Source: Methylophaga sp.
GTDB taxonomy: Bacteria > Pseudomonadota > Gammaproteobacteria > Nitrosococcales > Methylophagaceae
Reading direction: 5' to 3'
Assembly: GCA_002706095.1 (NCBI GenBank)
Contig: PAJP01000006.1
Coordinates: forward strand, 41,007-76,721
DNA: 35,715 nucleotides
Shown here: positions 1,830-31,415 of the stretch, one piece after another
Position numbering within the stretch: the stretch's first letter is position 1
Layout of the letters: each line of letters starts with the position of its first letter
The notes under the pieces: model-generated
The model's database searches: none
Seen by the model: only the letters and a program-made list of their open reading frames with translations
Told to the model about the DNA's origin: nothing
Position numbers and translations under genes: made by a program

Positions 1830-3251
1830 TCAATTCACCGTTATGTTTATGTACGTTGTACGTGATCTTGCAATACCATCAAAAGGTACTTCTATATTAG
1901 CTGTCGAGTAATTCACACCGTCTGTACCAATCTCTAATGATTCAATCTGATGATTAGGAACACTGTTGATAGGTGTGTATAATCTTGAGTAGATCACATT
2001 ATCACCAACACCATACTGTGAATCTAAGAAGTCGATAATCGCATTAGCAATCTTATCAGGCCCATCAGAATCAAAATTACCAAGCGCTGTAATCTCAAGG
2101 TTCACGTACACAGGAACTTCAACAGGTCTTATGAATTGTATGTCTTGGTTGAAACCTTGTGAATCAACAATCGTGACAGTGGTGTTACCAAACGTCTGTA
2201 TACCTGCTGGTTTATTCCTCCAAATGACATTGCCAATCTCTAATGAAGAACCGCCTTCAACAACTGCTACAACAGAGTGTGGGGGAAAACCTCTTGAGTC
2301 TTCTACATCAGTTACGTTTTCATAGGCAGTCACTTCTTCAACACCTAAAAGACCCAACAAGTCTGAATAGATAGCTTCAAGAGTATTAGATGCGCGCGTC
2401 TCTTTAGAGTTTGCAAAGCGTGTACGTAGCTCCGTATCAGTTTCTCTAAAAGCACCTGTCTCAGCATCTACAGGGTTGATTACAGATACCCAACCGTTAA
2501 TAGGTTCAGCAACCGTGTCTATAGTCCCTAAAGGTTGTTCTTCAGGGCCAGCTTCTAAGGCTTGTACAGAACCCAACTTAGTAACTTCCCTTGCGACAAG
2601 GTTAGCTGATAGTTGGTAATTGTGAGTACGGAAGTTATCTTCAGAGGATATGTAGAGAACCCTGTTATCGTCCTCGTCAACAGAACTTTCAAATGTAGGG
2701 ATCACATCAAACAGGAGCGAAAGTTCTCTAGCAATATCTTGTATAGTATCACCAGGAAGTGCTGTGTAAGCTACTACTGAGGAATCATAAGTAACTGTGT
2801 AAGTATTTCCTTCTACAGCATTTACAGGTTCTACTTGTAGAGCAACCACGTTATTCAGATTAAAGAATACAGGATTGCGAAGCTCAAAGATATTACCAGT
2901 GAATGATGAAGATGCTAAAGAACCTGCTGGTAACTCAGTATCTTTATTCGCCACTAATAACACTGGTGAAATAGTAGGCCGTGCTTCAAAACGTGTAAGT
3001 CCTGATAATTCTACAAGTGCATCTAAAGAAACACCAGAAGCCTTATTAGGGTTAAATGAATTATAGACTTCTTCAGCAGCTTCCCACAAGTCACTTAATG
3101 ATGGGGCATCTACACGCAATGCTCTACCAAGAACTGTGTTTACATCTGTTGATATATCATCGCCATACTGATTACGAGCTTCTGTTTCAAGGTCTGCTAT
3201 AATCTGCCTTAGACGTTTTATGCGGAACCCTTCGTTAGTTACGCCTGCCAT
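1830..3251 (-). CDS. Baseplate assembly protein J-like
   Basis: A 473-residue protein of the Baseplate_J family (Mu gp47 / P2 gpJ / T4 gp6 group), which forms the baseplate wedge ring. The N-terminus has the family arrangement of an ADLETEARNQYGDDI-type helix followed by SVGRAL-like and LWEAAEEVYNSFNPNKASG segments, then SLDALVELSGLTR. The middle contains ETDTELRTRFANSKETRASN, close to the family signature EsDeelR.R...... . The C-terminus has paired beta domains typical of J proteins. A strong Shine-Dalgarno (AGGAGG) lies 7 bases before the ATG. It sits between the gp25-like and DUF2612-like genes, the usual order. Confidence 0.9.
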   Translation of the reverse strand: MAGVTNEGFRIKRLRQIIADLETEARNQYGDDISTDVNTVLGRALRVDAPSLSDLWEAAEEVYNSFNPNKASGVSLDALVELSGLTRFEARPTISPVLLVANKDTELPAGSLASSSFTGNIFELRNPVFFNLNNVVALQVEPVNAVEGNTYTVTYDSSVVAYTALPGDTIQDIARELSLLFDVIPTFESSVDEDDNRVLYISSEDNFRTHNYQLSANLVAREVTKLGSVQALEAGPEEQPLGTIDTVAEPINGWVSVINPVDAETGAFRETDTELRTRFANSKETRASNTLEAIYSDLLGLLGVEEVTAYENVTDVEDSRGFPPHSVVAVVEGGSSLEIGNVIWRNKPAGIQTFGNTTVTIVDSQGFNQDIQFIRPVEVPVYVNLEITALGNFDSDGPDKIANAIIDFLDSQYGVGDNVIYSRLYTPINSVPNHQIESLEIGTDGVNYSTANIEVPFDGIARSRTTYINITVN

Positions 3252-5467: not shown

Positions 5468-5815
5468 TCAGTCACCATTATCAGTAGGGCTTGGTACGTA
5501 ATATACCAAAGCATGTGTACGGTGAATGTTACGACCATCTTTCACATCCCATTCATATATCTCTTTTAGTTGTCTAGGTACTAATATGAATTGTCCTGTG
5601 AATTGTTCTAGTGCGTATTGACGTAACAAGGAAACACCTGTTAGAAGTTTTACACTTTCGATAACAGTCTGTCCTTGGGAATCTTCAATAGACATTAGGT
5701 AGGTCTTTGCACGATCTGAGTAGCGAAATGTGAAGTTGTAATCATCATCGTCAATGACGAAGTTGTATGAATAGAAGGGTTTGTTGAAAAGTGGTAAAGT
5801 TGCTTGGTATTCCAT
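5468..5815 (-). CDS. Baseplate plug-like protein
   Basis: A 115-residue protein. The frame stays open upstream, but the ATG at 5815 is chosen because AGGAGGTG stands 7 bases before it and the start overlaps the stop of the upstream Dit-like gene (TAATG). The sequence YSYNFVIDDDDYNFTFRYSD, then SIEDSQGQTVIESVKLLTG and LLRQYALEQF, fits a small beta-barrel protein family found between Dit-like and hub genes in contractile-tail phages (cyanophage baseplate plug, DUF6983-like). It would sit inside the baseplate around the spike. It is the second of two coupled cistrons. Confidence 0.65.
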   Translation of the reverse strand: MEYQATLPLFNKPFYSYNFVIDDDDYNFTFRYSDRAKTYLMSIEDSQGQTVIESVKLLTGVSLLRQYALEQFTGQFILVPRQLKEIYEWDVKDGRNIHRTHALVYYVPSPTDNGD

Positions 5816-6588
5816 TATAAAACACCTCCTAAAATAGCGTCTATAAGTTCCTGTGGAGGTGCAGTCTTCCAATAGGGTTGTTGACCTTCCCTCTCAAGAT
5901 CACCGTCTTCAACACCCTCTTGGTCGCCTTCATTAGATTCACCAGCAGCAGCATCAGAAACGCTTGGTGCAGGCTGTACATCTACATCAACTTCTTTAAC
6001 AAATGCAAAGCGTACTTTTTCAAATGTTAAGTTACACGATAATGAATCACCTGTATCAACATCTTCAATATCTTCAAAGTTACGGATTAAGCAATTCTCA
6101 ATCTGCTTTGTAGAGACTGACCTACCTATCTGGAAGTCATAGTCGTAATCAAGGATAGTTATAAGTTCTGAATTATCCCACGCATCTTGTAGACGTTCTC
6201 TAGCAATCTCATGTGAATACCCTCTGAACTCATCTACTTCAATGTTAGACTCTTGAGCATTTAGGAATTGTTGTACAGAACCAGGAAGAAGGTCTAGTAA
6301 GGATGATTGAGAGGGGATTACTGCGTCACTGACCGGAGTGTTGTAAACAGGATCAATATTCTGTTCTTCAATAAGTTCTGGTGAACGTGTTGAGGGGTTA
6401 TGGAAATCAGCACTGGAGATTATACCACGTATTGAGAATACAGGATTATCCTTAGCAACGTGGTCTGCAATAACTGCCGATTTATCTATGGGATGTTTTG
6501 AGATAGAACTGTTACGGGTTTTACTATATTGCGTGACAGCATCTAAAATGATGACTGAATCATCTTCAAAAAGAAGTGCTAAGGCCAT
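5815..6588 (-). CDS. Dit-like baseplate/tail protein
   Basis: A 257-residue protein from the ATG at 6588, which is preceded by AAGAGG at good spacing. An upstream in-frame ATG at 6630 would start inside the terminator-like hairpin and is unlikely. Residues 20-60 contain SKTRNSSISKHPIDKSAVIADHV-type text followed by a PVFSIRGIIS strand. The T..H P....a.I.DHV...P..l.l.G pattern is that of the Dit-like N-terminal domain found in phage tail proteins between tape measure and hub. The region from about residue 205 is acidic and Gly/Ser/Glu-rich, probably a flexible tail. Confidence 0.7.
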   Translation of the reverse strand: MALALLFEDDSVIILDAVTQYSKTRNSSISKHPIDKSAVIADHVAKDNPVFSIRGIISSADFHNPSTRSPELIEEQNIDPVYNTPVSDAVIPSQSSLLDLLPGSVQQFLNAQESNIEVDEFRGYSHEIARERLQDAWDNSELITILDYDYDFQIGRSVSTKQIENCLIRNFEDIEDVDTGDSLSCNLTFEKVRFAFVKEVDVDVQPAPSVSDAAAGESNEGDQEGVEDGDLEREGQQPYWKTAPPQELIDAILGGVL

Positions 6589-6610
6589 GTTGATACCTCT
6601 TATGAAAGAA

Positions 6611-6628
6611 GGGCGCTTGTACACGCCC
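6611..6628 (-). terminator. GC hairpin after tape-measure stop
   Basis: On the minus strand GGGCGTGTACAAGCGCCC forms a 5-6 bp GC-rich stem and is followed by TTCTTTC. It begins 8 bases after the tape-measure stop. An almost identical hairpin follows the sheath gene at 12496-12515, with the same stem and loop except for one base. The U-tract is interrupted, so a partial terminator or mRNA 3' stabiliser is also possible. Confidence 0.55.
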
Positions 6629-6635
6629 ATACTAT

Positions 6636-7808
6636 TTATTGCTCCGTTTCAGGCTCTAAGGAGGCTGTTTCTCGGAATACATTTTGAATTGTTCTTAGGA
6701 CTTCCTCTGAAACAACTTGCGGATCACCTGCGCCATCTACGTTTATTGTTATACCGCCTTGGACAAGATAGTTGCCAGCGCGTCTATTAGCCATCTCTTC
6801 AGGAGTCATTAGATTCATACCAGGGGGTATAAACCTTTGATCTGCGTTAGGGCCAAAAGATGATTGGTAATTACCTTCCATAAGTTCTTGCACAATCGGA
6901 GGGCCAATAACACTGGCTAAGAAGGCGTACATGTTCCCTCTTGAGGCCATGAACTTACGACCACCACTCATTAAAGTCCCTCGCCATCCACTTGAAGCAG
7001 TTGTTGTTGGAGGTCTTGTACTAGGCGACTGTGATGATGTACCACTTCTTTGATTAGTATTCCCAGGGCTTGATGTATTACTTCTTGATCCACCTCCAAA
7101 CAGTCGGCCCATACCTGTGCGAGCCGTACGAAGAAGCTTTAAAGCTCCGTATAAAGTCATTAGGGCAGCTACTACACGGGTAATAGTATCTACAAGGTCA
7201 TCTCCGAATTCACCTTTTAAGGTGTCTGCTGTTAAAGACAGCGCCCAAGGCAATAAGTAGACAAACATGAAGATTCTTCTAAACCACTTGCTGATTATTG
7301 CAAGCGTCCCTGAGAGAACCATGAATGCTACATTAACATTCAAACCTTTTTCTTCAAGGAATTCTAAAGCACTTCCTAGTTTTGTTGACCACACACCAAA
7401 GGTTTCTAAGACTTCAAATACTACGCCAAAACGTGACGCAACCTCTCCCGACAACATCCCAAAGAACTTGATTAATCCTTCGGAGTTTAGTAAGAAGTTT
7501 GAGATGGAGTTGGCGAGTCTGCGCATACCTTTGTCAAGACCCGCCTCATTGAAGGTCTTGTTAGCCATGAAAGTGTTTGTAGCAAGCCTTCCGTAAGCAG
7601 CGCTTGTAGAGTTTATGGCTTTTTGTAAAGCATCGCCACTGTTTGCAGAAATCATAAGCTCTTTGGAAAGTTCAGGCAAGAAGGTTTCTGCCATTAACTC
7701 ACCAGCTTCCATTGCTTTGAATAGAGCTTCTGTAGTGGCTTCTGTAGTGATACCGAGGTTATAGGCAGCTCTTGCAGCAGCCTTCATAGACCCTGGTAAT
7801 CTTTCTGC
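6636..7808 (-). CDS. Tape measure protein, exon 2
   Basis: The C-terminal about 390 residues of the tape measure protein. The sequence opens with AERLPGSMKAAARAAYNLGI, the second half of the conserved phage tape-measure motif whose first half ends exon 1 (AEELDSRLA). It continues with KAMEAGELMAETFLPELSKE, as in the TIGR02675-type tape-measure domain. A hydrophobic segment around residues 170-190 (FMFVYLLPWALSL) may be membrane-active during DNA ejection. A Ser/Thr/Gly-rich linker follows. An ATG at 7811 allows an independent reading frame, but the joined motif shows it is an exon. The 3' splice site is placed at 7809/7808 with a few bases of uncertainty. Confidence 0.85.
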   Translation of the reverse strand, partial: AERLPGSMKAAARAAYNLGITTEATTEALFKAMEAGELMAETFLPELSKELMISANSGDALQKAINSTSAAYGRLATNTFMANKTFNEAGLDKGMRRLANSISNFLLNSEGLIKFFGMLSGEVASRFGVVFEVLETFGVWSTKLGSALEFLEEKGLNVNVAFMVLSGTLAIISKWFRRIFMFVYLLPWALSLTADTLKGEFGDDLVDTITRVVAALMTLYGALKLLRTARTGMGRLFGGGSRSNTSSPGNTNQRSGTSSQSPSTRPPTTTASSGWRGTLMSGGRKFMASRGNMYAFLASVIGPPIVQELMEGNYQSSFGPNADQRFIPPGMNLMTPEEMANRRAGNYLVQGGITINVDGAGDPQVVSEEVLRTIQNVFRETASLEPETEQ

Positions 7809-8878
7809 CATCTGATTCTTACATTTATGTTCAGGAGAGATCGCTACACCTCTCCCCGCAACGTTACTTGCAGCTTATAGTCTCCTATAAGATCAGACCA
7901 TATCTTCATCCTTTTGGATGTCCACTGTTTCCCCTGTCAACCGCTTACAGGGTACGTGCGTAAGCACTGGTCGTTGAGCGTTAAATCTTAGAAATATTCC
8001 GATGAAATAGTTTTGTACCTAATCTTATAACGGATTCTCTTAACTTCAATAAAAGTGAGTTTCCGATTCTTACAGTTATCGGTTATCCACCTGTCAGAGT
8101 AACCTTCATTAATCTTGGTACAGACCCATCTTACTGTATCTTCAGAAAAGTCATTTTTATATTCGTGCTGGATGTTATACAAAACGCGGATATTAAAGTA
8201 CGTATCGCCTGCCTTTATTTTGCGTACAACATCCTTAGTTAGCCCATATTTATCTGCCACGTCCTTGACTCTAATACCTTCTTGTAATTCTTGACAGACT
8301 AGGTGTGCAATGTCATTGGTCATGCTGGAATTGTACAGGTCTTCACCAGACTGTTTTAATCCCATGTCGAGAGCGTGACGCTGGTTTTGAGACTTTGTGA
8401 CCCACTCAAGGTTTTCCGCATGATTGTTAAACTTGTTTCCATCTTTGTGATTGACATCTACCTGTCTTTCGTTCTCCTTTGGGGGTAGCCACGCTTTAGC
8501 AACAGCTATGTGCAATCTGTAGAAGCCTGTAACATTGCTGTGGGATGTGCGAAAATTGAGATATAGAGGCTTCCCCCTGGGAGTTCTTGTCATCTCTTTT
8601 TCTGTATCAATACGAAAGACCCTTCCACATTTTGACACCGCATAATTTGGAGCGTCTGGAACAGTTCGTACTAAAACACCGCTTATTTTAAATTCGTTCA
8701 TACTAATCTCCTACTGTAATTCAGAGCGATTTCTAAGATTTCTTCGCTGCTGATTGCCCATTGTAATATCTTGACAGTTTTCAAACCGTCACGCTTATGT
8801 TCACACATTACGTTGTGGTCTGTCAAGCTTTAGGGGTTTCCAGCATAAAAATGGATTATTGCCTGCACATTACTGTGC
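7809..8878 (-). ncRNA. Group I intron in the tape-measure gene
   Basis: The intron interrupts the tape-measure motif between AEELDSRLA and ERLPGSM. On the minus strand, exon 1 ends in GCT at 8879. The first intron bases (GCACA, loop GTAA, TGTGC, bulged A, GGC) form P1 with a U-G pair at the splice site. The conserved P4/J region TGGGCAATCAGCAGCGAAG is at 8742-8760. The R-type element CGCTCAACGACCAG is at 7967-7980. The S-type element GATGAAGATATGGTCTGATC is at 7891-7910. P7 is GACCA (7968-7972) with TGGTC (7896-7900), and P8 is CATCC-AAAA-GGATG (7907-7920). The HNH gene is inserted between P4 and the R element, that is in the P5-P6 region. The intron probably ends in G at 7809 or 7812. Length is about 1,070 bases. 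Confidence 0.9.
7988..8701 (-). CDS. HNH homing endonuclease (intron-encoded)
   Basis: A 237-residue protein inside the tape-measure group I intron. It contains the HNH core VDVNHKDGNKFNNHAENLEW (about residues 79-98), with His-Lys-Asp and the N..NLEWVT ending typical of phage HNH_3 homing enzymes. The N-terminus (APNYAVSKCGRVFRI) resembles the NUMOD4-type domain that usually precedes it. The C-terminal half has helix-turn-helix-like text (VKDVADKYGLTKDVVRKIKAG), which would read the target. It would cut the intronless tape-measure allele and spread the intron. AGGAG precedes the ATG, so it can be translated from the unspliced transcript. Confidence 0.92.
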   Translation of the reverse strand: MNEFKISGVLVRTVPDAPNYAVSKCGRVFRIDTEKEMTRTPRGKPLYLNFRTSHSNVTGFYRLHIAVAKAWLPPKENERQVDVNHKDGNKFNNHAENLEWVTKSQNQRHALDMGLKQSGEDLYNSSMTNDIAHLVCQELQEGIRVKDVADKYGLTKDVVRKIKAGDTYFNIRVLYNIQHEYKNDFSEDTVRWVCTKINEGYSDRWITDNCKNRKLTFIEVKRIRYKIRYKTISSEYF

Positions 8879-10147
8879 AGCGAGCCTAGAATCAAGCTCT
8901 TCGGCCATTATCTGGCCTTTGTTCGCCATCTGAATAACGCTTCGGAAAACTCCGTCCATGTCTGCTGCCGAGAGATTCAACACCCTCGCATACGAGACAA
9001 AACCTTCGAAGGTTTCTTGCATTTCGCCAGTCTGTAAATCAGACCCTTTCATAGCTGCTGCAAATTGTGTGTAGGCACTACCTAAACTAGTAATGTTCAC
9101 ACCAAGCTTGTCAGAAACGCTATGTAGATACTCGAATTGCTTGCCAGCTTCTTCGGCGCTTCCTGTTACAGCAACCAAACCCTGTTCCATTGCCACATAG
9201 TTTTGATAAGCTAAGGAAGACTGTACAGCACCAAAACCTGCAACCATTGTTCCTAAGCCAACGTCACTGTGCAGCGCACTTATCAAGCGGTGGTTTCCTA
9301 CTTGTCTAGGATCAGCACCACCTGCATAAATCCCACCAGCTCTTCCTACACGGCTTCCAGTAGCTCTTTGACGCCGCTCTATACGTTGTATATCACGATA
9401 GCGTCTATATTGATCTCCAAGTAATTCATTACGTCTTTCAAGAGATATATTACCACTTTTGTACTGAGTATTTACATAAGAGAAGTCTCTACGTATTTGT
9501 CTTAGTTGCTTACCATGCCTGTCATAACGCTTTTCAATTTGTTCTAATAAGTTTGCACGTTTATGCTCAGGTTTTATAAATTGTTGTTGTCTCCTATACT
9601 CTTGTCGAAGACCCCCAAGCAACTCAGCACGTCTTTCATAAGAAACATTACCACGTCTGTATTCACGGTTAATTTCTGAGTAGTCATTTCTTATTCTTTT
9701 TAAGCCTTGTTGTTCCTTGGAGATATTACCAAGGACTCTCTGAGTGCGTTTATTATCAGCTTGAACAAGTGTATCAATACGTTGTTGGATACGAGCCTGT
9801 GCAGAGGCTAATTGCGCTCTGTCAATATCTCCATCAGAAAACATACCTCTAACTGCTTGCATATCTTTTCTGGCACGGTCAAGTGATACAGGCACTTTGC
9901 CATAAGACCGTAAAATACCATCAAGTCTTGACTGAAGCTTCTCGGTATCTTTAGTTAGGTTTTGTGTAGCTCTAGCAGATTGATTAACACCTTTCGTATA
10001 CTGTTTAGACGTGGCAGCTTGCGCAGTGCCCATCTTGTTAATATCTCTGCGAAGGGTTTGCAAGTGACCTTCAAAAGCTTGCAAACCCTTCTTATCAACC
10101 TGAAAACCCAACCTTGCAAACAACGTTGCAATTGGTGATCCGGCCAT
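8879..10147 (-). CDS. Tape measure protein, exon 1
   Basis: The N-terminal 423 residues of the tape measure protein. After a short start (SPIATLFARLGFQVDKKGLQ) most of residues 20-260 are charged, helical and repetitive. Two similar units are visible, YRRGNVSYERRAELLGGLRQ and YKSGNISLERRNELLGDQYR, separated by about 65 residues, as expected for a coiled-coil ruler. Residues 300-423 form the conserved tape-measure domain ending GQIMAEELDSRLA. The frame runs three codons into the intron to a TAA at 8870. The joined product of exons 1 and 2 is about 813 residues. At roughly 1.5 angstrom per residue that predicts a tail near 120 nm. Confidence 0.88.
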
Positions 10148-10183: not shown

Positions 10184-10827
10184 TTAGCGGCCACCTCTAG
10201 GTTTTGCTCTCTCAGCATCCTTCTCAGCAGCCTGTTCAATGTCAGCCTCTAGATCAATTATCTCTAACAAGTCATAAACATCCGTTACTGAGTAATCTCT
10301 ATCTAACTCAACAACAGATGCCTTACCCTTAGAAACAATGAGGTAAACTTCAGGCTCCATATCGGAAGTCTCTGTAAAGTTCTTCCATACTCTATGAACA
10401 TTGCTTTGTTTAGATTGCTGCTGCCCATTGTTATCAGAAGATTGTTGTGACGCTTTTACTGCGGCATACCTTCTTGGGCCTCTTGCAAAAAATCTGCAAA
10501 GTTAAATGAAATCACCTCCCAAAGCAATGTTAAGAGTGTTCCATAATCACCTGCAAACTCATTGTCAAAGTCAATAGCAAACTTATTCTTGGTGGTTAAT
10601 GATAAGAGTTCTTCGATAGTCTTCTCATCAATATCATCAAGATGGCTTGCTGCTGCCTCAAGAAGATCACCTAACGAGGGTTCTGCTGAACCTTTTTTGT
10701 AAGCTGCTGCTAAAGCTGGTAACATCACCTTAGCAACTTTTTTTCCGAGGCGCAGCCCCTGACGACCGCCAAATTGTGTAATCTGATATTTATTATCTTT
10801 GATAGTAATTTCTTTTGTATCGCGCAT
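10184..10827 (-). CDS. Tail assembly chaperone, -1 frameshift fusion product
   Basis: A predicted 214-residue product. Translation starts at 10827, shifts to -1 at the T TTT TTG heptamer (10486-10492) and reads on to a TAA at 10184-10186. The extension reads FFARGPRRYAAVKASQQSSD, then a Gln/Asn-rich linker and VYLIVSKGKASVVELDRDYS, ending KPRGGR. The downstream frame has no start codon of its own, yet is open and has sensible protein composition. This arrangement, just before the tape-measure gene, is the classical one for tail chaperone pairs such as lambda G/GT. The fusion would be made in small amounts and bridge tape measure to tube subunits. Confidence 0.85.
10456..10827 (-). CDS. Tail assembly chaperone, short form
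   Basis: The unshifted 123-residue product. It is a small, helix-rich protein with a charged N-terminus (EITIKDNKYQITQFGGRQGL) and an acidic second half, resembling phage tail assembly chaperones of the TAC type. It would coat the tape measure during tail assembly and not be in the virion. It lies between the third tube-like protein and the tape measure, which is the standard location. The last codons overlap the extended -1 frame. Confidence 0.85.
   Translation of the reverse strand: MRDTKEITIKDNKYQITQFGGRQGLRLGKKVAKVMLPALAAAYKKGSAEPSLGDLLEAAASHLDDIDEKTIEELLSLTTKNKFAIDFDNEFAGDYGTLLTLLWEVISFNFADFLQEAQEGMPQ
10486..10492 (-). promoter_or_regulatory. Programmed -1 frameshift site (T TTT TTG)
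   Basis: The zero-frame codons GAT TTT TTG contain a canonical slippery heptamer T TTT TTG. Slipping one base back joins the chaperone to the open downstream frame. A 9-base match to the anti-Shine-Dalgarno, GGAGGTGAT (10511-10519), lies about 18 bases upstream. That kind of internal SD is known to stimulate -1 shifting, although the usual spacing is shorter. No strong downstream pseudoknot was seen by eye. Confidence 0.85.
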
Positions 10828-12529: not shown

Positions 12530-13831
12530 CTAAATCGTGAGTCGGCCTTGGATAGAAACTGCGTGCACCGCCCCTTGAAGAGTACCTTCAAAAGAGAAGC
12601 CTTCAGCAACACGATTTGCACGTAGGTTCGGATCAAGTGACCGAGGATTAGGAACATTCACTGTATAGCTTGCAAGACCACCTACAGCAACACCTTCGTT
12701 AAGAACTTCACGCATACGACCTTCAATGATTGCAAAGCCTGCTGAAGTGTAAGGAATCTTTTCAGAGTTTACTAAGGTTAGGTAGATACGCTCACGCATA
12801 CGTGCTTCTAACCAATCTGCGAACCTCAACACATCGACAAATTCACCGTTCACAACACGACCTTCTGCAAAGATATTACGACCACCAATATTTTCATAGG
12901 TGTTGTAACCTTTACCATAATCGAAACGTGTACCTTTCAAAGTAAGGCTTTCAGTAGTTGATAAACGACTTACAGTAACACCTGATACAGACTTAAACTT
13001 CCAAGTGGTTGAACCAGGGTCTTTAGGAGCTTGCAATCCTACAATGGCACACTCAGGGTATTCAGTATCATCCTCAGCAAAGATTACAACAGTACGTGCT
13101 AAGTCTTTTGCTTGCAATACAGAACCAATATCAGAAGTCACTAGGGAGTTCTTAGCCTGAGCAGCAGATGTAGAGGTCACGTAAATACGCTTCTCAGCTT
13201 CTACAATCTCTGCAAGGGCTTCTACATCAGCAGGCTCATGTGTCTCAGCATTAACGAAGTAGAAGTCATCATCTTGAGACTTGATATAACCATAAGCATC
13301 TGCGTAAGTCTCAATGTTTTCTGTCTCAGTCAACTCAGTAGTGGTGGTTGAATAAGTGAAGTTGTTAAAGTCTGCGGGAATCAGTGTAAAGGTTCCATCA
13401 GAATTATCTACAAAGCGACCATCAATAGCCGCATCTCGATAAGCCTGTTCAAGACCATCTACAATCTCTTGTACAGTTGCTCCAACTTCAGGAGTATAAC
13501 TTACTTCAGTCCCGTCTACAGTTACCGCATATTCAGTACCACCAGCAGTCACTTCATAAGTAACACTTGCAACAGCAGCAGTATCGTGATAACCAACCTT
13601 AACAAATGTTGGTGAAACTTGTTGACCAAAGTATCGACGCAATGCAACTAGCTCAGCATCGCCCTCTGCAAAGTCTTCTTCAGCTTGTGTAACACTGGAA
13701 TAAGTACGGACACGTTCATCAGTACCAAAACCTGTAGTACCAATAAATAGTGGTGTACCAAAACCCTGACGACTAACGCCACGAGTCTCCCTTGAAATAT
13801 TGATCGTTACGATCTCATTAACTCTCGCCAT
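12530..13831 (-). CDS. Tail sheath protein (DUF3383-like)
   Basis: A 433-residue protein that forms the contractile sheath. The opening NEIVTINISRETRGVSRQGF followed by TPLFIGTTG matches the DUF3383 sheath family. The central part has repeated beta-domain text (TYEVTAGGTEYAVTVDGTEV), and the C-terminal part has LRFADWLEARMRERIYLTLV, then a Gly-rich stretch, ending RVAEGFSFEGTLQGAVHAVS-type strands. Sheath proteins usually use such C-terminal strands to mesh subunits. It is followed by the tube gene and preceded by connector genes, as in other myoviruses. Confidence 0.9.
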   Translation of the reverse strand: MARVNEIVTINISRETRGVSRQGFGTPLFIGTTGFGTDERVRTYSSVTQAEEDFAEGDAELVALRRYFGQQVSPTFVKVGYHDTAAVASVTYEVTAGGTEYAVTVDGTEVSYTPEVGATVQEIVDGLEQAYRDAAIDGRFVDNSDGTFTLIPADFNNFTYSTTTTELTETENIETYADAYGYIKSQDDDFYFVNAETHEPADVEALAEIVEAEKRIYVTSTSAAQAKNSLVTSDIGSVLQAKDLARTVVIFAEDDTEYPECAIVGLQAPKDPGSTTWKFKSVSGVTVSRLSTTESLTLKGTRFDYGKGYNTYENIGGRNIFAEGRVVNGEFVDVLRFADWLEARMRERIYLTLVNSEKIPYTSAGFAIIEGRMREVLNEGVAVGGLASYTVNVPNPRSLDPNLRANRVAEGFSFEGTLQGAVHAVSIQGRLTI

Positions 13832-25913: not shown

Positions 25914-25990
25914 TGGAATCGGGTAAGGGATTCGAACCCTTGAACAAAGGATTTGCAGTCCTCGCTATTAGACCTCTCTAGCAACCCGAC
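25914..25990 (-). tRNA. tRNA-Cys (GCA)
   Basis: The cloverleaf can be drawn. The acceptor is GTCGGGT/ACCCGAT with one G-U pair, discriminator T, and an encoded CCA. The D arm starts CTAG. The anticodon stem is GAGGA/TCCTT with loop CTGCAAA, anticodon GCA. The T arm is AAGGG-TTCGAAT-CCCTT. Length is 77 bases. It lies 7 bases from the second tRNA-like gene and in the same orientation as the leftward early transcript. A phage tRNA-Cys would supplement host decoding of TGC and TGT in phage genes. Confidence 0.93.
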
Positions 25991-27829: not shown

Positions 27830-28135
27830 ATGACTTATCAAAAACCTAAGCAAGAGAATCAATCTAACACAGGACACACTGAAATCAAATTGTATTCTCA
27901 GAATGAACTTGATACGATGCTGTACAAGCAATTCCAAGACCTCTCAAAATCTTTCTTGGAAGCGGTTGTACAAGACAATATCAATCTGTATCATAAATTT
28001 CTCCATGACCAATTAACAACAGATGATTTCATTGATTGTTGTGCTAAATACGGTGTAAATTTAGAAGACCGCTACCAAAGTCTTTTAAAGATTATCCAAG
28101 ATAATGAATCTGATTTAGAGGAATACGATGTATGA
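27830..28135 (+). CDS. First rightward early protein, unknown
   Basis: A 101-residue protein, first behind the rightward promoter. It is acidic and helical: NELDTMLYKQFQDLSKSFLE, AVVQDNINLYHKFLHDQLTT and DRYQSLLKIIQDNESDLEEY. No family is recognised. First early genes often act on the host, but nothing in the sequence shows how. Its stop overlaps the next gene's ATG by 4 bases. Confidence 0.55.
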   Translation: MTYQKPKQENQSNTGHTEIKLYSQNELDTMLYKQFQDLSKSFLEAVVQDNINLYHKFLHDQLTTDDFIDCCAKYGVNLEDRYQSLLKIIQDNESDLEEYDV

Positions 28136-28683
28136 CTACAGTTATTGTTGATTTTAAAAATAAGAAAGTCTATGCTGACAAAACACGTACCTCTTTAAGA
28201 GACTGTACAAATTCTTTTCTAGTCAGAGCTTTTATCGGAGAGTCTGCGATAGACGAATACAGTCACTTTGACGATGGAGTATGTAAATTACGAACTACTT
28301 CGGATGGGTGCATACTGACGGGTGCAGGGAATGCTGATGTAATAAGTGCTTTTGGAAAATACCCTAGTTGTATCCCAGACACACCAAAGTCCTCGACAGA
28401 TGTAGTGATACTGAGATCAAAAGAAAACGCTGTACGTGTCATTCGGTACTCGTGTTCTGATAGGAACAAAATTTTTGGTAAGAAAAAGTGGATAGAGACT
28501 GTAAATATGAAAAGTGAGGGGTACCTTGTGCTGGGTAGTGGTAAGAACTTTGCATTAGGGGCTTTATACTCTGGTGTAAGTCCTGCGGAAGCGATTCTAG
28601 CAGCTTCTAAACTAGACCCTTTCACAAGTTCTTCTTATGATGTTCAAGATATTCCTAATTGTGAGGGTGACAGTAATGTATGA
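28132..28683 (+). CDS. Proteasome/HslV-like Ntn hydrolase
   Basis: A 183-residue protein with the layout of HslV and proteasome beta subunits. After Met removal it would begin with Thr (MTTVIVDFKNKKVYADKTRT), as in HslV TTIV... . Asp16 in VYADKT fits HslV Asp17. Lys52 in VCKLRTTSDGCILTGAGNAD fits HslV Lys33 before the VIAGFAG-type strand. Residues 134-145, LGSGKNFALGAL, match the GSGG.yA..A. loop, and 'SPAEAILAASKLDPFTSS' the following helix. It would be a self-compartmentalising protease or a related amidohydrolase. No unfoldase partner is visible here. It overlaps genes on both sides by 4-8 bases. Specific substrate unknown. Confidence 0.7.
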   Translation: MTTVIVDFKNKKVYADKTRTSLRDCTNSFLVRAFIGESAIDEYSHFDDGVCKLRTTSDGCILTGAGNADVISAFGKYPSCIPDTPKSSTDVVILRSKENAVRVIRYSCSDRNKIFGKKKWIETVNMKSEGYLVLGSGKNFALGALYSGVSPAEAILAASKLDPFTSSSYDVQDIPNCEGDSNV

Positions 28684-30655: not shown

Positions 30656-30680
30656 TAGATAATTTTGGAGGAGAATGTTA

Positions 30681-31415
30681 ATGGAAGCTGTGTATATCGA
30701 CCATATGGGTAACGACCTTCGTGTAGCTAACGTTGCACGTGTAAGCTTTAACAACTGGAAAGAAGAATTTGACAGTGGTGATGAGGGGCTTATCAAGTTC
30801 CTTGCGAGCGGTTGGTCATCTAAAGATTGGGATAAGGCCGCTGAGTTTTTACAAGGAACATCCGACAAAGAAGGTATCCGTAATCTTCTTAACGAAGTGA
30901 AAAACATTCCTACACATTGGACACCCTTTGCACATTGTCAGATTTCACTACGTATGACAGCACCCGTACCAATTCGTACACAATGTTTTAAGCATAAGCA
31001 GGGGTTTGTCGAGAATGAGCAGTCAAAAAGATACTTGAGCAGTACACCATCACTTTTCATCCCAGATTTTCGTAGTAAGCCTGAGGGAAGCATTAAACAA
31101 GGATCAGGAGGTATTCATCCTTTAAATGGGGAATGGCAAAACCAGTACATTGCTCACTGTAATCAAGCTATCTCAACCTACGAAAACATGATTGCTGGTG
31201 ACGTAGCCCCTGAACAAGCACGCTTTGTATTACCCCAAGGTGTAGAAGTGACATGGATTTGGACAGGTTCTTTAGCAGCCTATGCACGATTTGCTATCCA
31301 ACGTTCTGATAGCCATGCACAAGGTGAGATCAATGAGCTTGAGAAGCTGGTGAGTAACATTATCGAACCCTTATTCCCCGTATCTTGGAAAGCCCTTAAA
31401 AATAATTCTGAGTAA
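30681..31415 (+). CDS. thyX: FAD-dependent thymidylate synthase
   Basis: A 244-residue protein from the ATG at 30681, 7 bases after GGAGGAG; an ATG at 30675 is too close to that site. It makes dTMP from dUMP with methylene-tetrahydrofolate, NADPH and FAD. Family marks: HWTPFAHCQISLRM, then PIRTQCFKHKQGFVENEQSK followed by RY, which is a variant of the RHRxxSxNExSxRY motif with KHK in place of RHR and keeps the E..S.RY end. Later PEQARFVLPQGVEVTWIWTG and ARFAIQRSD hold the usual Arg and substrate residues. It supports phage DNA synthesis independently of host ThyA. The hairpin after it would end this transcript. Confidence 0.9.
   Translation: MEAVYIDHMGNDLRVANVARVSFNNWKEEFDSGDEGLIKFLASGWSSKDWDKAAEFLQGTSDKEGIRNLLNEVKNIPTHWTPFAHCQISLRMTAPVPIRTQCFKHKQGFVENEQSKRYLSSTPSLFIPDFRSKPEGSIKQGSGGIHPLNGEWQNQYIAHCNQAISTYENMIAGDVAPEQARFVLPQGVEVTWIWTGSLAAYARFAIQRSDSHAQGEINELEKLVSNIIEPLFPVSWKALKNNSE

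What the first reader, a model, noticed from the sequence alone, without database searches (positions are those of the whole stretch)
7809..8878. Group I intron with HNH gene inside the conserved motif of the tape-measure gene
The reading frame stops and restarts in the middle of the family's conserved AEEL...ERLPG motif. Between the parts are P1 with a U-G splice pair, P4, R-, S-, P7 and P8 elements, and an HNH gene placed between P4 and the R element. Introns in phages are usually in replication or packaging genes. A tape-measure host gene is less common, and ordinary annotation would record two truncated proteins. The exact 3' end (G at 7809 or 7812) would give one amino acid more or less.
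Basis: partly seen in the sequence, partly recalled or inferred. Interest (0 to 1): 0.8.

Follow-up and report, generated by a model that had tools for sequence, protein, structure and literature searches.

The report
Mobile group I intron, tape-measure gene
A phage gene that sets tail length is interrupted by a self-splicing intron carrying its own DNA-cutting enzyme gene; the same arrangement is already known in the cholera phage ICP1, and several different introns sit in this one short stretch of the gene in distantly related phages.

Summary
Real, and of a known kind. The minus strand carries a group I intron with an HNH homing-endonuclease gene inside the tape-measure (TMP) gene of a myovirus-like phage. 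Rfam Intron_gpI gives 37.5 bits, E 1.2e-7 on the region, below the curated cut-off of 50.

Homologous introns, P1 and P10 pairing, and uninterrupted TMPs put the intron at 8894-7822, not 8878-7809. The hairpin read as P1 is a peripheral P2. Splicing gives MAEEL|KNQMAERLPG, with no insertion against any of 7 uninterrupted relatives.

Vibrio phage ICP1 has the homologous intron at the same position. Its HNH protein is 58% identical, and ICP1 TMP splicing was shown by RNA-seq and RT-PCR (PMC10448857), which calls TMP a frequently interrupted gene.

Beyond what I saw in print: in the phages read here, introns occupy four sites within 24 nt of this motif, leaving exons as short as 8 nt. HNH lineages follow the site: 6 of 6 at this site form one clade, and 4 of 4 (two nearly identical) at the site 8 nt upstream form another.

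The parts
8895..10147 (-). TMP exon 1 (1253 nt, ends GAA GAG CT^)
   Evidence: Pfam TMP_3 PF20155 on the 425-aa frame; junction set by P1, P10 and alignment to 7 uninterrupted relatives
7822..8894 (-). group I intron, 1073 nt, last base G7822
   Evidence: Rfam RF00028 37.5 bits; compared with 7 homologous introns at the same site
6636..7821 (-). TMP exon 2 (starts T AAG AAT CAG ATG; stop included)
   Evidence: PHROG tape-measure families on the frame from 7811; 72% identical to L003 over 243 aa
7988..8701 (-). HNH homing-endonuclease gene, 237 aa, between the two strands of P6
   Evidence: PF13392 and phrog_59; 58% to ICP1 hdgA/ORF80
8708..8713 (-). TAGGAG, probable ribosome-binding site of the HNH gene
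   Evidence: found before the HNH start in 6 of 6 ORF-bearing site-c introns and not found in the 2 ORF-less ones
8895..8899 (-). P1 5' strand GAGCU (exon), splice U at 8895
   Evidence: pairs with 8882-8886; GAG/GAA change in the exon followed by GGC/GGU in the intron
8882..8886 (-). P1 3' strand / internal guide GGCUC
8863..8880 (-).
   Evidence: absent from L031_i1; stop position
8850..8855 (-). P3 5' strand UCCAUU
7921..7926 (-). P3 3' strand AGUGGA
   Evidence: 47 of 48 cells paired over 8 introns, all 6 pairs with two-sided changes
8841..8845 (-). P4 5' strand UGCUG
8748..8752 (-). P4 3' strand CAGCA
8745..8747 (-). P6 5' strand GCG (by eye)
   Evidence: read from the sequence, not tested
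7978..7980 (-). P6 3' strand CGC (by eye)
   Evidence: read from the sequence, not tested
7968..7972 (-). P7 5' strand GACCA
7896..7900 (-). P7 3' strand UGGUC
7907..7920 (-). P8 hairpin CAUCC/GGAUG
7875..7890 (-). P9 hairpin UUAUAG/CUAUAA
   Evidence: 48 of 48 cells paired over 8 introns

Best explanation
A mobile group I intron sits in the Leu codon of the MAEEL motif of the phage tape-measure gene. The RNA folds around P3-P8, attacks after U8895, which is held in a U.G pair by its guide GGCUC, joins exon 1 to exon 2 after G7822, and so restores an 812-residue TMP. The HNH protein, made from its own ribosome-binding site inside P6, most likely cuts intron-lacking TMP genes at this conserved motif and so copies intron and gene into them. 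Shown here: homology, structure with covariation, same-site relatives, restored frame. Shown by others for the ICP1 relative: splicing. Inferred: splicing in this phage, translation of the HNH gene, cleavage and homing.
For: Rfam Intron_gpI 37.5 bits, E 1.2e-7. Eight introns at the identical codon position: the window, ICP1, ICP1 M4, Aeromonas phage PhAER-4 and four IMG/VR phages. P3 pairs in 47 of 48 cells and P9 in 48 of 48 over 8 introns, P8 in 35 of 35 over 7 (L026 left out); shuffles of the 3' strands reach this in 0, 1 and 0 of 2000. The P1 exon wobble base goes with the guide: GAGCU/GGCUC in four, GAACU/GGUUC in three (two of them ICP1 isolates), GAGCU/GGUUC in one. The join has no insertion against 7 uninterrupted TMPs and the best TMP_3 score of three joins over the 107-109 aa around it, 39.2 against 34.2 and 33.1 bits. 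HNH 58% identical to ICP1 hdgA over 99% of its length, sisters in the tree at 97/91. ICP1 TMP splicing by RNA-seq, RT-PCR and Sanger sequencing (PMC10448857, section 21 read).
Against: The Rfam score is below the curated cut-off (37.5 against 50). P10 in the window has one mismatch in its first five pairs, and only 2 of 5 form in L031_i1. P1, P4 and P7 vary too little to be tested alone: shuffles reach the observed pairing in 134, 102 and 71 of 2000. Helix strands were picked by eye, which favours pairing. By eye, a P9.0-like UGA/UCA pairing ends just before G7812, which would favour that 3' end (note). No RNA data exist for this phage here, and HNH cleavage is untested.
Confidence: 0.95

Rival explanations
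1. Same intron, but spliced at the first reader's sites (after 8879; before 7808 or 7811), with the GCACA/UGUGC hairpin as P1.
For: Both joins keep the frame. G7809 and G7812 are possible last bases, a U.G pair can be drawn with a bulged A, and in that register the 7809 end can form a 3-bp P10 (GCA/UGC) and the 7812 end follows a P9.0-like UGA/UCA (by eye, note).
Against: Inserts 1 or 2 residues where none of 7 uninterrupted relatives has one; TMP_3 scores 5-6 bits lower; the hairpin is missing in L031_i1; with the guide GGCUC only 2 of the first 5 P10 pairs form, against 4 of 5.
Confidence: 0.05
2. The insertion does not splice: TMP is made as two separate proteins, or the gene is dead.
For: Exon 2 has its own ATG at 7811; PMC7344957 reports one phage CB7 HNH intron for which no splicing was seen (passages).
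Against: The RNA core is intact and covaries; the ICP1 homologue splices; both exons are conserved up to the precise junction; identical DNA is in another public contig, whose independence I did not check.
Confidence: 0.03
3. A free-standing HNH gene or an intein interrupts TMP, without a ribozyme.
For: Most HNH genes surveyed in phages appear free-standing (PMC10448857).
Against: An in-frame stop 23 nt into the insert speaks against an intein; a group I core is present.
Confidence: 0.01

Closest known systems
Vibrio phage ICP1 tape-measure middle intron with hdgA (ORF80)
   Same: Same codon position, homologous HNH (58% identity), same guide logic (GAACU/GGUUC), same TMP motif; ICP1 TMP splicing shown experimentally (PMC10448857)
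   Different: ICP1 has two further introns in the same motif, giving exons of 8 and 16 nt; the window has one. The exact ICP1 junctions are my reading of the sequence; the paper's figure is not held.
Aeromonas phage PhAER-4 tape-measure introns
   Same: First intron at the same site with HNH 59% identical
   Different: A second intron without an HNH gene 11 nt downstream; flanking genes annotated only as hypothetical proteins
Pakpunavirus PseuPha1 tape-measure intron
   Same: HNH-bearing group I intron in the same motif
   Different: Site 8 nt upstream with a different HNH clade; congener PaoP5 lacks it, 886 of 1000 aligned flanking columns identical
T4 td-type phage introns (recalled, no call)
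   Same: Reading frame looped out of P6, extra hairpins between P7 and P3, intron ending in AUG
   Different: Host gene and endonuclease family

Membership tests
Group I intron (Rfam RF00028) | significant match to the group I covariance model | tested here: met
   37.5 bits, E 1.2e-7 region / 3.1e-6 window; below Rfam's gathering score of 50. ORF-less same-site homologues reach 84.5 (M4_i2) and 60.9 (L031_i1)
Group I intron (Rfam RF00028) | P1 with U.G at the 5' splice site and a guide sequence | tested here: met
   GAGCU^/GGCUC, 40 of 40 cells paired over 8 introns; one pair has two-sided changes; not above shuffles on its own (134 of 2000)
Group I intron (Rfam RF00028) | P3, P4, P7, P8 core | tested here: met
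   L031_i1 left out for P4 and L026 for P8
Group I intron (Rfam RF00028) | terminal G at the 3' splice site and P10 | tested here: met
   G7822; P10 4 of the first 5 pairs
Group I intron (Rfam RF00028) | guanosine-initiated self-splicing | not testable with these tools
   needs an in-vitro transcript or RT-PCR
HNH homing endonuclease (HNH_3, PF13392) | HNH_3 domain above curated cut-off | tested here: met
   35 bits, cut-off 24.8
HNH homing endonuclease (HNH_3, PF13392) | cuts the intron-lacking allele near the insertion site | not testable with these tools
   needs purified protein
Tape-measure protein (TMP_3, PF20155) | TMP_3 domain above cut-off, among tail genes | tested here: met
   exon 1 55.1 bits, cut-off 41; TAC_15 upstream and Dit_like downstream; exon 2 alone has no Pfam match but PHROG tape-measure matches
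ICP1-type TMP site-c intron lineage | same insertion codon and HNH in the same clade | tested here: met
   8 introns at the site; 6 HNH proteins one clade, 100/99

The most novel reading that the evidence does not exclude
The conserved TMP motif (QVMAEELKGQLGERLPG) is a landing strip for group I introns. Four distinct sites within 24 nt, and two more just upstream, are occupied in phages of Vibrio, Enterovibrio, Aeromonas, Pseudomonas and unidentified hosts, with up to three introns at once and exons of 8-33 nt between them. Each site is served by its own HNH lineage that moves between distantly related phages, so that HNH phylogeny predicts the site.
Probability: 0.75. Interest if true: 0.5.

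Novelty: new member of a known kind. Interest (0 to 1): 0.4.

Why it matters
It corrects the annotation (one 812-residue TMP instead of two fragments) and adds a member to the ICP1 TMP intron lineage. The crowding of different introns, with HNH lineages that go with the site, into one 24-nt motif makes a general question testable: why homing endonucleases settle in particular codons, and how exons as short as 8 nt are joined accurately between two group I introns.

Tried and rejected
Rfam with default cut-offs on the window: only a tRNA. Pfam on exon 2 alone: nothing. Other introns in the window: no further Rfam hit at E up to 0.1 apart from the tRNA. HNH relatives in bacterial genomes: 48 loci, best segments 29-57% identity over parts of the protein, none full length. 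In 57 genomes of the host family, the window's own included, 3 have a match: the own genome (this gene and one weak one), G066 and G010 (weak). Site e as a single HNH clade: not recovered, but not rejected (AU p 0.414). The MAFFT alignment of whole introns misplaces the last exon base in some rows, so helices were counted from strands picked by hand. Homing as the cause of the diverged exon flanks between window and L004: not established, because identity is also low (40-59%) at nt 1921-2339, far from the intron. No structure prediction was run because the families are clear. Literature searches over the open-access library: for TMP introns I found ICP1 (PMC10448857, PMC9040626); in what I saw of the 8 papers opened (passages, and one section of PMC10448857) nothing describes several insertion sites across phages. 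The other listed papers were seen only as listing and start of abstract, so this is no proof of absence.

Full report
WHERE IT IS. The window lies at 41007-76721 of a 114,763-base contig of a 3.57 Mb bacterial assembly. The genes around the finding are those of a myovirus-like tail: sheath (12530-13831), tail assembly chaperone TAC_15 (10456-10827), tape measure, Dit-like protein (5815-6630). Identical DNA is in the IMG/VR contig 3300020369_000001 (72,839 bases): the three stretches held of it (two overlapping) match the window at 100% over 5935, 3489 and 3299 bases. One genome of the same species has no match to the HNH protein.

OBSERVATION. Exon 1 (425-aa frame ending at 8870) matches Pfam TMP_3, and the frame from 7811 matches tape-measure PHROGs though no Pfam family. 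The HNH gene at 7988-8701 matches PF13392 above its cut-off. Rfam Intron_gpI matches 7874-8063(-) with 37.5 bits (E 1.2e-7 for the region, 3.1e-6 for the window), and weakly the P4-P6 part at 8713-8845(-) (15.4 bits, E 0.55). The score is below the gathering score of 50, so the default search missed it.

SPLICE SITES. Related introns show otherwise. ICP1, ICP1 M4, PhAER-4, L024, L025, L026 and L031 carry an intron at the same place of the TMP motif (L027 and L028 are the same as L026 over the intron and 300 bases on each side). In all eight, counting the window, five exon bases ending in U pair with a guide beginning with G: GAGCU/GGCUC in four, GAACU/GGUUC in three (two of them ICP1 isolates), GAGCU/GGUUC in one. 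The changing exon base is the silent third base of a Glu codon. The hairpin taken as P1 is absent from L031_i1, so it is P2. The 3' end is the G of ACATAAATG (7822).

PROTEIN TEST OF THE JUNCTION. The join 8895/7821 reads QIMAEELKNQMAERLPGS. Pfam TMP_3 bits over the 107-109 aa around the junction are 39.2, 34.2 and 33.1 (the cut-off of 41 is for whole proteins). A 191-aa stretch with this join matches 1123 phage records, of which 648 cover at least 80% of it in one place; of the 60 listed, 59 run in one piece at least 42 residues past the junction, and the last, Vibrio phage IBT_VpB-34, stops 4 residues past it. So most listed TMPs are uninterrupted at this point.

RNA STRUCTURE. Over the eight introns, P3 pairs in 47 of 48 cells and P9 in 48 of 48, with two-sided changes in all 6 pairs of each. 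P8 pairs in 35 of 35 over seven (L026 left out), with two-sided changes in 4 of 5 pairs. P4 pairs in 35 of 35 over seven (L031_i1 left out), and P7 and P1 in 40 of 40. Shuffling the 3' strands among sequences reaches the observed count in 0 (P3), 1 (P9), 0 (P8), 102 (P4), 71 (P7) and 134 (P1) of 2000. Strands were picked by eye, so P1, P4 and P7 carry little weight on their own while P3, P8 and P9 carry much. By eye the HNH gene lies between the two strands of P6. TAGGAG stands just before the HNH start in 6 of 6 ORF-bearing introns and is not found in the two ORF-less ones. The first in-frame stop after exon 1 lies 8-26 nt into the intron in 8 of 8, before P3 in 7 of 8. It may keep ribosomes out of the ribozyme core; that is inference.

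WHAT IS KNOWN. The HNH protein is 58% identical over 99% of its length to ICP1 ORF80/hdgA and 59% to a PhAER-4 protein. In the best tree window and ICP1 are sisters (97/91). Barth et al. 2023 (PMC10448857; section 21 read, other passages) showed by RNA-seq, RT-PCR and Sanger sequencing that ICP1 TMP has four exons and three introns, typically with an HNH-3 gene in the middle one, and wrote that TMP is frequently interrupted by homing genes. The ICP1 review had hypothesised the splicing (PMC9040626, passages). A group I intron in another phage tail gene is published (PMC3706429, passages), while a paper on Bastillevirinae reports introns only in nucleotide and DNA metabolism and terminase genes there (PMC11878797, passages). 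The finding is therefore a new member of a known kind.

WHAT MAY BE NEW. Reading the junctions of the other TMP introns met here gives these sites. Site b, after the Ala or Ser before EEL: ICP1 and M4 intron 1, L003, L004, PseuPha1, L078 and V1.084.O. Site c, in the Leu codon of EEL: window and the seven above. Site d, in the Leu of QL: PhAER-4 intron 2 and L035. Site e, after the next Gly or Ala: ICP1 and M4 intron 3, L031, L078 and V1.084.O. Two further sites lie just upstream (L025 intron 1, V1.084.O intron 1). Sites b to e span 24 nt, and the exons between introns are 8, 11, 16, 18, 24 and 33 nt. Only ICP1 and M4 have RNA evidence, in the paper; the other junctions rest on pairing and frame. 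In a tree of 30 HNH proteins, the six at site c form one clade (100/99) and the four at site b another (100/100; L003 and L004 are nearly identical). Site e (four rows) is not recovered as one clade because L035 (site d) falls inside it; one clade is not rejected (AU p 0.414). The bootstrap had not settled and one row was a fragment. Of seven phage loci fetched with site-b and site-e HNH queries, four lie in TMP (of one, only the 5' junction was read) and three, at 35-37% identity, show no TMP by annotation or by eye. The loci were found by HNH similarity, so the clustering of near relatives is partly by construction; that near relatives sit at the same codon in every case read here is not.

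MOBILITY. PaoP5 and PseuPha1 are of one genus; PaoP5 lacks the site-b intron, and 886 of 1000 aligned flanking columns agree. Window and L004 TMP genes are 90-100% identical in nt 1-840, 50-53% in nt 961-1320 around the intron sites, and 98% at the 3' end, which would fit homing or module exchange; but identity is also only 40-59% in nt 1921-2339, far from the introns, so this is weak. Homing itself is untested.

VERDICT. Real, correctly recognised in kind, wrong in its ends, ordinary as a class; the crowded insertion sites are the part worth following.

Noticed in passing
window 6636-10147 against L004: TMP identity is 90-100% in nt 1-840 of the coding sequence, 50-53% in nt 961-1320 around the intron sites, also low (40-59%) in nt 1921-2339, and 98% at the 3' end; the two phages carry different introns 8 nt apart.
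   Followed up: partly
L020, L102, L021, L031, L078, L104: Exons of 8, 11, 16, 18 and 24 nt lie between neighbouring group I introns in TMP genes of ICP1, M4, PhAER-4, two IMG/VR phages and Vibrio phage 1.084.O.
   Followed up: partly
L165 about 2690-3000: In Vibrio phage IBT_VpB-34 the TMP is annotated as two overlapping genes; the reading frame changes inside the same MAEEL motif, with no long insert between the parts.
   Followed up: no
L005/L006 (IMG/VR 3300020369_000001): Both ends of the 72,839-base viral contig fall inside the HNH gene and overlap (residues 139-163), as in a circular or terminally redundant genome, while the host assembly has the phage on a 114,763-base contig.
   Followed up: partly
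window 8903-8905: At the neighbouring site b the window has codon GCC, where the 6 site-b exons checked end in U (GCT or TCT).
   Followed up: no
window 25917-25990 (-): A tRNA gene, the only Rfam hit in the window at gathering scores.
   Followed up: no
window 30675-31415 (+) and 28132-28683 (+): Phage-type thymidylate synthase and a match to a peptidase HslV family PHROG on the opposite strand.
   Followed up: no
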